Positions 22,493 through 25,694 of a stretch of 42,231 bases of DNA are shown here, in pieces. Under the pieces are notes generated by a model. That model searched no databases, was not told where the DNA came from, and saw nothing but the letters and a program-made list of their open reading frames with translations. How positions within the stretch are numbered: the first letter of the stretch is position 1; each line of letters opens with the position of its first letter. Origin of the DNA: Thermoleophilaceae bacterium (GTDB taxonomy: Bacteria; Actinomycetota; Thermoleophilia; Solirubrobacterales; Thermoleophilaceae). The translations under genes and the position numbers were made by a program. The stretch is taken from the NCBI GenBank assembly GCA_036378175.1, contig DASUWY010000028.1, forward strand, positions 1 to 42,231, given 5' to 3'.

Positions 22493-23917
22493 TTAATGCG
22501 CCGCCACGTGCGTGCCTGGCGCTGGCCGCACGGCGGGCACGGCCAGCGCCGCCACCACCGCCATGCCGGCGGCGAGGATCGCGCCCGCCAGCGCGCCGTG
22601 CCCGTAGCCGTGGGCGAGCGTGCTGCCACCGGCGAGGGCGACCGCGGAGAAGATCGACACGCCGAACGCCCCGCCGATCTCATGGGCCGTCGTCATCAGG
22701 CCGGAGGCGAGGCCGGCGCGCTCGCCTTCGATATCCGACATCGCGGTGACCGACACCGACACGAACACGAGCCCGATCCCGAAGCCGAGCGGCAGGAAGG
22801 CGGGGAGGAGGTTGGCGAAGTAGTTCGCACCGGCGCCCACGCGGCTGAGCAGGAGCTCGGCCCCGGCGATCAGCACGAGACCGGCCACCACCACGATCCG
22901 CGCGCCGAGGTGGTCGAGCAGGTGCGGCCCCGCATGCGCGGCAAGTCCGATCACGAGCACGAGCGGCAGGAACGCCAAGCCCGTCTCGAGAGCTGAGCTG
23001 CCGAGCACGTTCTGGAGGAACAGCGAGTTGAGGAAGAAGGTTCCGACCAGGATGCCCGTGGTGCCGAGCATCACCGCGGCGCTCGACACGAGCGACCGCA
23101 CCTCCCACGTGGCCGGCGGGATCAGGGGTCGCTCGGAGCGGCGCTCGATCGCGACGTGCATGGCGAGCACGACGGCGGCGGCCGCGAGGAGAACGATGGT
23201 CTGCGCGGACGCCCAGCCGTGGCGGGCGGCGCCCTCCACTCCGTACACGAGCACCACGAGCCCCGACACGAGCGTGGCCGCACCCGCGAGGTCGAGCTCG
23301 CGCAGCGAACCGTCGCGTTCGGAGCGCGCGGGCACGAGCCGGGTGGCGAGCAGGGCGGTGGCCACGCCGATGGGGACGTTGATGAAGAACACCGACTCCC
23401 AGCCGAGCCAGGTGGTGAGGATGCCGCCGAGCAGGACGCCCGCCGCCGCGCCGCCGGCGCCGATCGCGCCCCACGCGCTGAGCGCCGTGGTGCGCTGCTG
23501 GCCGGTGTAGGTGGTGGTGATGATCGAGAGCGCCGCGGGGGAGAGCAGCGCCGCGCCGAGACCCTGCGCGCCGCGTGACACCACCAGTGCCGCCGGTGTG
23601 GACGCAAGCCCGCTGGCGAGCGAGGCGGCGGTGAACAGCACGAGGCCTGCGAGGAACACGGGCCGGCGGCCGAGCATGTCCGCCACCCGGCCGCCGAGCA
23701 GCAGCAGCCCGCCCGTGAAGAGGACGTAGGTGGTCACCACCCACTGCAGATCGCCGGGAGCGAAGCCGAGGTCGTGCCTGATCGATGGCAGGGCCACGTT
23801 CACCACCGTGATGTCGAGGATGACCATGAACTGCGCGACGGCGAGGAGCACCAGCAGCGTCCACGGCTTGCGCTCGTGGGAGTGCCGGCTGGGGACAGGG
23901 GCGGCGGCCTGATGCAT
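22493..23917 (-). CDS. DHA2-family MFS drug exporter
   Basis: A 474-residue proton-driven exporter of the DHA2 group with about 14 helices. Motif D1 is LDITVVNVALPSIRHDLG in helix 1 and motif A is GGRVADMLGRRP. Motif B follows (SRGAQGLGAALLSPAAL), and motif C is AIGAGGAAAGVLLGG. ATG 23917 is favoured by AAGGAAG six bases upstream. It is transcribed divergently from a TetR gene across a 72-bp region with two matching operators, so it is almost certainly repressed by that TetR and induced by a substrate drug. It is related to, but distinct from, the exporter at 11011. Confidence 0.92.
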   Translation of the reverse strand: MHQAAAPVPSRHSHERKPWTLLVLLAVAQFMVILDITVVNVALPSIRHDLGFAPGDLQWVVTTYVLFTGGLLLLGGRVADMLGRRPVFLAGLVLFTAASLASGLASTPAALVVSRGAQGLGAALLSPAALSIITTTYTGQQRTTALSAWGAIGAGGAAAGVLLGGILTTWLGWESVFFINVPIGVATALLATRLVPARSERDGSLRELDLAGAATLVSGLVVLVYGVEGAARHGWASAQTIVLLAAAAVVLAMHVAIERRSERPLIPPATWEVRSLVSSAAVMLGTTGILVGTFFLNSLFLQNVLGSSALETGLAFLPLVLVIGLAAHAGPHLLDHLGARIVVVAGLVLIAGAELLLSRVGAGANYFANLLPAFLPLGFGIGLVFVSVSVTAMSDIEGERAGLASGLMTTAHEIGGAFGVSIFSAVALAGGSTLAHGYGHGALAGAILAAGMAVVAALAVPAVRPAPGTHVAAH

Positions 23918-23937: not shown

Positions 23938-23953
23938 TTGACACTGGTGTAAA
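23938..23953. promoter_or_regulatory. TetR operator 1, overlapping the tetR -35 box
   Basis: TTGACACTGGTGTAAA is a quasi-palindrome of form TTnACAC-N2-GTGTnAA. Its first six bases are a TTGACA -35 box for the plus-strand regulator gene, with TACAGC as a possible -10 box 17 bp downstream. It pairs as an inverted repeat with the site at 23971 (15 of 18 bases including flanks). Confidence 0.75.
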
Positions 23954-23970
23954 GGCAACGTACAGCATGG

Positions 23971-23986
23971 TTTACACTTCTGTCAA
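23971..23986. promoter_or_regulatory. TetR operator 2, overlapping the exporter -35 box
   Basis: TTTACACTTCTGTCAA mirrors operator 1. On the minus strand it contains TTGACA, a -35 box for the exporter gene, with TACGTT 18 bp further as the -10 box. Site centres are 33 bp apart, about three helical turns, so both would be bound on one DNA face. Confidence 0.75.
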
Positions 23987-23989
23987 CCC

Positions 23990-24571
23990 ATGAACCCGAC
24001 GAAGAGCGAAGACCACCGGCGGGCCATCGCCGAGCGCAACGTGGAGGCGATTCTCGATGCGGCCGAGCGGCTGCTCGGGCGGCGCGCTCAGCCGAGCATC
24101 TCCGCCGTCGCGGCCGAGGCCGGCGTGTCGCGCCCCACCGTCTACGCCCACTTCGAGGATCGCGAGCGGCTGCTCGAGGCGCTGGTGGAGCGGGCGGTGC
24201 GCAACGCCACCGCCGCGCTCGAGGCGAGCGAGCCGGAACGCGGCCCGGCGATGGAGGCGCTGCAGCGACTGGTCGCCTCGAGCTGGCAGGAGATCGGCCA
24301 CAACGAGGACATCGGCCGCGCATCCGCCGCCGAGCTCAGCGCCGAGGCCATGCGGCGCGCGCACGAGTCGGCGCGCGCGGTGCTGGCGCGGCTCGTGGAG
24401 CGCGGGCGGCGCGAGGGCGCATTTCGCACCGACGTCCCGGCCGGCTGGCTCGTGACGAGCGCGCTGGCGCTGATCCATGCCGCGGCCGAGGCCGTTCGGG
24501 AGGGCGAGCTCGATACCGAGTCGGCGCTCACGGTGCTCACCGGGAGCGTGGTCTCTCTGTTCAGCGCGTGA
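23990..24571 (+). CDS. TetR-family repressor
   Basis: A 193-residue regulator. The TetR helix-turn-helix is at about residues 14-60: AERNVEAILDAAERLL, then ISAVAAEAGVSRPTVYAHFEDRERLLEAL, with the typical recognition helix PTVYAHF. The C-terminal all-helical domain (about 65-190) is the ligand-binding and dimer part and varies freely in this family. The ATG at 23990 comes three bases after operator 2 and has no Shine-Dalgarno sequence, so the message is probably leaderless or nearly so. Control by its own product and of the divergent MFS gene is inferred from the paired operators. Its 3' end overlaps the convergent ABC permease by 11 bp. Confidence 0.92.
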   Translation: MNPTKSEDHRRAIAERNVEAILDAAERLLGRRAQPSISAVAAEAGVSRPTVYAHFEDRERLLEALVERAVRNATAALEASEPERGPAMEALQRLVASSWQEIGHNEDIGRASAAELSAEAMRRAHESARAVLARLVERGRREGAFRTDVPAGWLVTSALALIHAAAEAVREGELDTESALTVLTGSVVSLFSA

Positions 24572-25694
24572 GGCGCCAGGCGGCGCGAGCACTCACGCCG
24601 GATCCGCTGAGCAGGCCGCGCGCGTACACGCGCCCCGCGAAGCGCACGAGCCCGTAGATCGTGACGAGCACGAGCACCAGCGCGAGTGCGTGCTCCCACA
24701 GCGGCACGCCCACCAGGGCGCTGCGCGCCGGCAGCACCAGCGGAGCGGTGAGCGGGAACACCGTGAGCAGGTTCGCGAGTGCGCCACTCGAGTCGGCCGA
24801 CACGGCCACGTAGCCGGCGAAATAGGCGGCGAGCAGCGTGTAGGTGACGGGCTGCCCCGCCGTGTCGGCGTTCTGCTGGCGTGAGGCGAGCGCGCCGGCG
24901 GCGGCGTACGCCACCGCGTAGAGAGAGAAGCCGAGCGCGAACCACGGCACCACCAGGGCCAGGCTGCCGCCGAGCTCCGCCGGAGCATCGAATGCGCCGG
25001 CCGCGAGAAGCGCGGCGGCGAGCCCGGCCACGAGCGCGAGCTGACCGAAGCCGAGGAGACCGATCCCGATCACCTTCCCGGCGAGAAGATGCCGTCCCTC
25101 CACGGTCGAGAGGAGCAGCTCGCTCACGCGGTTGTTCTTCTCCTCAACCACGCCGCTCACCACCCACTGGCCGTACACCGCGAGCGACATGAGCAGAAGG
25201 AGCGCTCCGCCCATCGCCACGAGAATGGCCGCGTCAGTGGAGCCGGTGTCGGCCGGCTGAAGGGTTGCCGTCCGGAGCTCCGGCGCCGGCGGCAGGTGGC
25301 GGCGGAACGAGCGCACGCCGGTGTCGGCTATCGCGGCGAGCTTGGTGTCGACGTTCGAGCGAAACACGAGGCTGCTCGGACCGAGAAGCAGCAGCGCGTC
25401 CACGTGCTTGCGGTGGAGTGCCTCCCGCGCCGCGGGCTGCGAGACGAACGCCCGCAGCTTCACCTTTGCGTCGAGAGGCTTGGCGCTCCGCTGCAGCGCG
25501 GCGTCGAGACCCTGCGGGGCCGGCACGATCACGGCCACGCGGTAAGTCCTGTCCTTCGAGAGCGCGCCGCTCAGAGCGGTCGAGCCGCCCACGAGCAGCA
25601 GCAGGACGAGAGTTGACACGAGGAAGGCACGGCTGCGCACGCGCTCGCGGATCTCGCGCTCGGCCACCAGCCGGATCGCGCGCCGCCCGCTCAT
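24561..25694 (-). CDS. ABC-2-type exporter permease (NatB-like)
   Basis: A 377-residue permease. An N-terminal helix (about 23-44) is followed by a large external domain (45-160), then five or six helices to the end, the ABC-2/NatB layout. The cytoplasmic coupling stretch VVEEKNNRVSELLLSTV is a strong family sign. It overlaps the ATPase gene by four bases (ATGA), so translation is coupled and the two form one exporter. NatAB-type systems export Na+ or toxic compounds; the substrate here is not known. Confidence 0.88.
   Translation of the reverse strand: MSGRRAIRLVAEREIRERVRSRAFLVSTLVLLLLVGGSTALSGALSKDRTYRVAVIVPAPQGLDAALQRSAKPLDAKVKLRAFVSQPAAREALHRKHVDALLLLGPSSLVFRSNVDTKLAAIADTGVRSFRRHLPPAPELRTATLQPADTGSTDAAILVAMGGALLLLMSLAVYGQWVVSGVVEEKNNRVSELLLSTVEGRHLLAGKVIGIGLLGFGQLALVAGLAAALLAAGAFDAPAELGGSLALVVPWFALGFSLYAVAYAAAGALASRQQNADTAGQPVTYTLLAAYFAGYVAVSADSSGALANLLTVFPLTAPLVLPARSALVGVPLWEHALALVLVLVTIYGLVRFAGRVYARGLLSGSGVSARAAWRLTR

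What the first reader, a model, noticed from the sequence alone, without database searches (positions are those of the whole stretch)
23938..23986. Two mirror-image TetR operators, each containing the -35 box of a divergent gene
TTGACACTGGTGTAAA and TTTACACTTCTGTCAA share the form TTnACAC-N2-(G/T)TGTnAA. Each outer half is a TTGACA -35 element, one for tetR and one for the MFS exporter. Centres are 33 bp apart, about three turns, so two dimers could bind side by side and shut both promoters. The tetR ATG follows operator 2 by three bases with no ribosome site, so the message is probably leaderless.
Basis: seen in the sequence. Interest (0 to 1): 0.55.

Follow-up and report, generated by a model that had tools for sequence, protein, structure and literature searches.

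The report
TetR repressor's paired operators, bidirectional promoter
A small switch lies between a drug-pump gene and its repressor gene, where two matching repressor-binding sites overlap both genes' start signals; it is a well-preserved but basically familiar type of bacterial drug-response control.

Summary
Two imperfect 16-bp palindromes lie at 23938-23953 and 23971-23986, centres 33 bp apart, in the 72-bp gap between a DHA2-type MFS exporter (-) and a TetR repressor (+). Each outer half is an exact TTGACA. They are very probably the TetR's operators. The pair recurs in the two closest relatives found (TetR 85% and about 62% identical). In more distant homologues, mostly with the exporter upstream of tetR in the same direction, paired palindromes usually still bracket the exporter's -10 box, and in one subgroup the half-site changes to CAGACA together with residues of the TetR recognition helix.

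Two parts of the reading fail. Spacing varies (26-29, 32-35, 47 bp), so a three-turn, side-by-side arrangement is not conserved. "Leaderless" is unproven: the promoter implied gives a leader of about 17 nt, and the third divergent relative has a longer leader with a possible ribosome site.

Best model: two overlapping, opposed promoters with abutting -10 boxes. Each operator covers one promoter's -35 and the other's predicted start, so either dimer could block both genes until a ligand releases the repressor. SimR/SimX and acrR/acrA work alike: a new member of a known kind.

The parts
23938..23953 (.). Operator 1 (TTGACACTGGTGTAAA): outer half is the tetR -35; inner half covers the predicted exporter start (about 23950)
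23971..23986 (.). Operator 2 (TTTACACTTCTGTCAA): outer half, read on the - strand, is the exporter -35; inner half covers the predicted tetR start (about 23973)
23938..23943 (+). tetR -35 candidate TTGACA, 17 nt before its -10 candidate
23961..23966 (+). tetR -10 candidate TACAGC (weak, no final T)
   Evidence: same weakness in G001 and G099 (sequence)
23981..23986 (-). Exporter -35 candidate TTGACA, 18 nt before its -10 candidate
23957..23962 (-). Exporter -10 candidate TACGTT; shares 23961-23962 with the tetR -10 candidate
22493..23917 (-). MFS exporter, EmrB/DHA2-like; ATG at 23917-23915 with AAGGAAG upstream
23990..24571 (+). TetR-family repressor, 193 aa

Best explanation
The 49-bp stretch is a repressor-controlled bidirectional promoter. 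Two opposed promoters lie through each other: the exporter's -35 is in operator 2, tetR's -35 is in operator 1, and their -10 boxes lie between the operators and overlap by 2 bp. Each operator therefore covers one promoter's -35 and the other's predicted start, so a TetR dimer on either site can hinder both genes, and RNA polymerase should fit in only one orientation at a time. A ligand of the TetR, probably a drug or metabolite that the pump exports, would release it and raise pump and repressor together. Shown by sequence: the sites, the genes, their conservation, and half-site change alongside TetR change. Inferred: binding, repression, start sites, polymerase exclusion and ligand.
For: Both sites and both outer TTGACA kept in G001 and G099 between the same divergent genes. 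In 12 of 14 readable exporter promoters next to a TetR homologue of the order, a palindrome pair brackets the -10 and is matched by at most 50 of 2000 shuffles. Exporter promoters of the TTGACA type: 7 of 7 have exact TTGACA in operator 1 with TAnnnT 17-19 nt on. CAGACA-type operators go with a VRAT(V/I)YVH or SRATTYVH recognition region. TetR and MFS domains. No other site but one in the genome at up to 1 mismatch. Passages on acrR/acrA and SimR/SimX.
Against: In G060 (228 of 2000) and G023 (540 of 2000) the pair is not significant. The strict promoter scan found none. The tetR -10 candidate lacks the final T in all three divergent genomes, so the tetR promoter may be weak or elsewhere. The CAGACA regulators of the order are one clade, so the co-change is few events. 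No binding or start-site data.
Confidence: 0.8

Rival explanations
1. One reading: two dimers bind side by side about three helical turns apart, that placement being what shuts both promoters, and the tetR message is leaderless.
For: Spacing is exactly 33 bp in both genomes of the genus; the ATG lies 3 bases after operator 2 in both; no ribosome site there; a second -10-like TACACT at 23973-23978 could place the start a few bases before the ATG (sequence).
Against: Spacing of supported pairs elsewhere is 26-29, 32, 35 and 47 bp. G099 has a longer leader with a possible ribosome site. TACACT is part of the conserved operator and has no good -35 at 17-18 nt.
Confidence: 0.12
2. Only the exporter promoter is regulated by the pair; tetR is expressed from a weak or unrelated promoter, and the TTGACA facing tetR is there only because it is a repressor half-site.
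For: The tetR -10 candidate is weak in all three divergent genomes. In co-directional relatives the pair sits before the exporter, whatever lies on the other side. Half-sites are TTGACA or TTTACA also where no outward gene is known.
Against: In all three divergent genomes the outward-facing half towards tetR is exactly TTGACA while the inner halves are TTTACA, as if the -35 were selected; there is no other room for a tetR promoter in the 72-bp gap without overlapping the sites.
Confidence: 0.2
3. An 8-codon reading frame (23967-23993, ending in ATGA over the tetR start) lets tetR be translated by termination and restart, replacing a ribosome site.
For: Present with ATG in G000 and with GTG in G001 at the same place (sequence).
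Against: Nearly all of it is conserved operator; its start lies upstream of the predicted transcript start; in G099 the corresponding ATG is in frame with tetR instead.
Confidence: 0.06
4. The sites belong to another regulator (a second TetR in the genome) and the neighbourhood is incidental.
For: The genome has another, 31% identical TetR (G000:C51).
Against: Sites travel with this TetR in relatives, also into other gene settings, and change with its recognition helix.
Confidence: 0.03

Closest known systems
SimR/SimX of simocyclinone producers (PMC5812520, passages read)
   Same: TetR repressor and MFS pump, divergent genes, two separate operators in the gap; the exported compound releases the repressor.
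   Different: Positions of the SimR operators relative to -35 and start were not in the passages read; ligand here unknown; orthology not tested.
acrR/acrA bidirectional promoter of E. coli (PMC12825309, passages read)
   Same: TetR auto-repressor and efflux genes driven from one bidirectional promoter with a shared -10; polymerase can bind in only one direction at a time.
   Different: Efflux system is AcrAB/TolC, not MFS; two operators placed on the two -35 boxes were not described in the passages read.
MAB_4384 and MmpS5/MmpL5 of Mycobacterium abscessus (PMC5895659, passages read)
   Same: TetR and divergent efflux genes, palindromic operator between them, two dimers modelled, both directions repressed.
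   Different: One 27-bp palindrome and an MmpL pump instead of two 16-bp sites and an MFS pump.
LfrR/LfrA of Mycobacterium smegmatis
   Same: LfrR (2v57) is the best sequence match among solved structures, E 5.1e-12; LfrA is a DHA2-type pump related to this one.
   Different: Weak similarity only: exporter scores 132 bits against the LfrA cut-off of 825. Gene order lfrR-lfrA in one direction is recalled, not checked.

Membership tests
TetR family regulators | N-terminal TetR helix-turn-helix domain (PF00440) | tested here: met
   42.7 bits, cut-off 24, E 4.9e-11
TetR family regulators | TetR-type C-terminal ligand domain | tested here: met
   PF17938 27.9 bits, cut-off 26.2; a narrow pass
TetR family regulators | Binds a palindromic operator as a dimer | not testable with these tools
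   Palindromes found and conserved; no binding data
MFS / DHA2 drug exporters | MFS domain (PF07690) | tested here: met
   164.4 bits, cut-off 33.4
MFS / DHA2 drug exporters | NCBIfam TIGR00711 efflux_EmrB cut-off | tested here: inconclusive
   229.5 bits against 230.2, just below
SimR/SimX-type divergent repressor-pump pair with two operators | Divergent tetR and MFS pump genes with two palindromic sites in the gap | tested here: met
SimR/SimX-type divergent repressor-pump pair with two operators | Exported compound releases the repressor | not testable with these tools
   Ligand unknown
Bidirectional promoter with shared -10 | Opposed -10 boxes that overlap | tested here: inconclusive
   TACGTT (-) and TACAGC (+) share 23961-23962, but the + box is weak and the strict scan found no promoter
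Bidirectional promoter with shared -10 | Divergent starts 10, 18 or 23 bp apart | not testable with these tools
   Predicted 23 bp from the -10 boxes; starts not mapped
Leaderless mRNA | Transcript starts at or within a few bases of the start codon | not testable with these tools
   No 5' ends; the best promoter predicts about 17 nt

The most novel reading that the evidence does not exclude
Because the operator half-site is itself a -35 hexamer, a mirrored operator pair makes a promoter in both directions with little further sequence. An ancestral exporter promoter with two such operators could thus offer a ready-made, repressed outward promoter to whatever gene lands beside it: tetR in three genomes here, an MMPL gene in G082 and, by sequence similarity, G419. 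Divergent self-regulated switches could then arise by a single rearrangement.
Probability: 0.3. Interest if true: 0.45.

Novelty: new member of a known kind. Interest (0 to 1): 0.27.

Why it matters
It gives a compact, sequence-supported model of drug-pump control in a little-studied actinobacterial group, and a natural series (TTGACA, TGGACA, CAGACA half-sites; 26-47 bp spacing; divergent and co-directional) for testing how TetR specificity and promoter layout evolve together. For a specialist it is mainly a clean example of a known kind.

Tried and rejected
Sequence-blind pair score as proof of rarity: rejected, since 8 pairs in the window reach the same score. Helical phasing as the conserved feature: rejected on the spread of spacings (circular mean length 0.41 over 19 rows, of which G060, G023 and G454 are not statistically supported pairs; G023's second site was placed by eye, G060's and G454's pairs are the best-scoring ones). 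A regulon beyond the locus: one further site with 1 mismatch at G000:C55:12087, at the edge of an open frame that looks like a CorA-type transporter (resemblance recalled); not followed. Spread on viruses: 0 matches to the pair pattern in viral contigs. Plasmid homologues of the TetR: 31 records, all under 60% identity. For G060, G023 and G014 the first region tested cut off the sites (their rows are void) and was redone further downstream. Structure prediction was not run, since it would not test DNA binding. Two literature searches found nothing on the exact layout; they are too narrow to show that it is unreported.

Full report
What is there. The window is contig C28 of a 4.29-Mb, 89-contig genome. 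The nearest relative searched (G001, same genus, TetR 85% identical) has its match on a 28,572-base contig at the coordinates found in record JAICJR010000019.1, titled Thermoleophilaceae bacterium; G099 matches in the same way record WHSW01000199.1, titled Solirubrobacterales bacterium. Between an MFS exporter read leftwards (ATG at 23917) and a tetR gene read rightwards (ATG at 23990) is a 72-bp gap. In it lie two imperfect 16-bp palindromes in mirror image: the TTGACA half faces outward in both, the TTTACA half inward.

Is it more than chance. Within the gap, 2 of 20,000 dinucleotide shuffles give as good a pair. The window holds 7 other pairs with an equal or higher sequence-blind score, all GC-rich and of different sequence, so the score alone proves little. 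The motif is far rarer: 4 of its 5 window matches at up to 2 mismatches are these sites on two strands, against 0.21 expected, and the genome has one further place at up to 1 mismatch. The full pair is found in 3 of 399 class genomes, with no hit of the reversed control.

Conservation. In G001 both sites are present at 33 bp and in G099 (TetR about 62% identical) at 35 bp, always between divergent exporter and tetR. Of 232 order genomes, 23 (the window's own included) have a TetR homologue at E<=1e-30. In 15 of these 23, tblastn places an exporter next to tetR: 3 divergent, 12 with the exporter upstream in the same direction. In the other 8 no exporter match was seen; one of them (G400) is at a contig edge. 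One exporter promoter (G046) is off its contig, leaving 14. In 12 of the 14 the best palindrome pair is matched by at most 50 of 2000 shuffles (G302 50, G419 10, G092 9, the other nine none); in G060 (228) and G023 (540) it is not significant. From the phylum search, G106 (co-directional, 0 of 2000) and G774 (divergent, 29 of 2000) also have pairs; G660, also found there, showed no exporter match in the stretch read. Three genomes of the order without an exporter there (G272, G390, G454) have a pair before a small membrane-protein frame that precedes tetR (3, 1 and 366 of 2000, so not significant in the last). G272 and G390 print the same sequence, so they are hardly independent.

Half-site and regulator change together. 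Seven exporter promoters (G000, G001, G099, G302, G419, G082, G092) have a first operator that contains an exact TTGACA 17-19 nt before a TAnnnT. G014 uses TGGACA. G026, G415, G448, G019 and G106 use CAGACA, and there a TTGACA-like -35 (TTGACA, TTGAAC or TTGACG) stands separately just upstream of the first operator. The TetR recognition region reads SR(P/V)TVY(A/G)H in the seven, has Q at the variable place in G060, G023 and G014, and reads VRAT(V/I)YVH in the four CAGACA types of the order and SRATTYVH in G106. Which of these residues touch DNA is inferred from general TetR knowledge, not tested. The four CAGACA types of the order form one clade (97/93 support), so this is one or few events.

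Promoter anatomy. Exporter: TTGACA at 23986-23981, 18 nt, TACGTT at 23962-23957; a start about 7 nt on would be near 23950, inside operator 1. tetR: TTGACA at 23938-23943, 17 nt, TACAGC at 23961-23966; start near 23973, inside operator 2. The -10 boxes share 2 bp and the predicted starts are 23 bp apart. Passages of PMC12825309 give 18 bp as the commonest distance between starts at bidirectional promoters, with 10 and 23 bp also common, a -10 to start distance of 7 bp as optimal, and treat acrR/acrA, a TetR auto-repressor and its efflux genes, as such a promoter. Against this, a strict consensus scan found no promoter and the tetR -10 lacks its final T in all three divergent genomes.

Spacing is 33, 33, 35, 32, 35, 35, 35 in the TTGACA-type exporter promoters, 35 and 35 in G272 and G390, 29 in G014, 27, 27, 27, 27, 26 in the CAGACA types and 47 in G774. 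That speaks against a conserved helical phase in the family but does not exclude cooperativity in this genus. Leaderless translation is undecided: the start codon is supported, because homologues start 4-7 residues before the conserved DHRRA-type motif (read), but the transcript start is unknown. In G001 the ATG also follows operator 2 by three bases; in G099 it lies about 33 bases after operator 2, behind a possible ribosome site.

How it probably works. Without ligand, TetR dimers on either or both sites block both promoters; because each site covers one -35 and the other predicted start, one dimer may suffice. With ligand the repressor leaves, the stronger exporter promoter fires most, and tetR is made at a lower rate to reset the switch. 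The steps after the sequence facts are inference.

Standing. Passages of PMC5812520 describe SimR/SimX, a TetR repressor that binds two operators between divergent repressor and MFS pump genes and is released by the exported antibiotic. Passages of PMC5895659 describe a divergent TetR and MmpL pump pair with a palindromic operator. The present case is therefore a new member of a known kind; what it adds is the mirror layout with both -35 boxes inside the operators and its conservation record.

Noticed in passing
window 24561-24571: The 3' ends of tetR (ends 24571, +) and of the ABC-2 permease-like frame (24561-25694, -) overlap by 11 bases.
   Followed up: no
window 23967-23993: 8-codon frame MVYTSVNP* whose stop overlaps the tetR start (ATGA); in G001 the same frame starts with GTG.
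   Followed up: partly
L065 (G082) and L066 (G419): The far side of the operator pair faces a divergent gene: an MMPL-family protein in G082 (PF03176, E 1.4e-33) and a similar frame in G419.
   Followed up: partly
L064:807-1193, minus strand (G272; also G390, G454): A TetR of this group follows a 129-aa membrane-protein frame instead of an exporter, with a paired operator before that frame; the frame overlaps the tetR start.
   Followed up: no
L042 and L044 (G434, G378): A single TTTACA-type palindrome lies between tetR and a divergent frame that resembles a VOC/glyoxalase protein (resemblance recalled).
   Followed up: no
L014, between exporter and tetR (G092): A long inverted repeat (GTCCTGGATTGGTG ... 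CACCAATCCAGGAC) lies between the co-directional exporter and tetR, perhaps a terminator or attenuator.
   Followed up: no
G000:C55:12087-12102 (L003:1501-1516): Only other near-match to the operator in the genome (1 mismatch), at the edge of an open frame that looks like a CorA-type transporter.
   Followed up: partly
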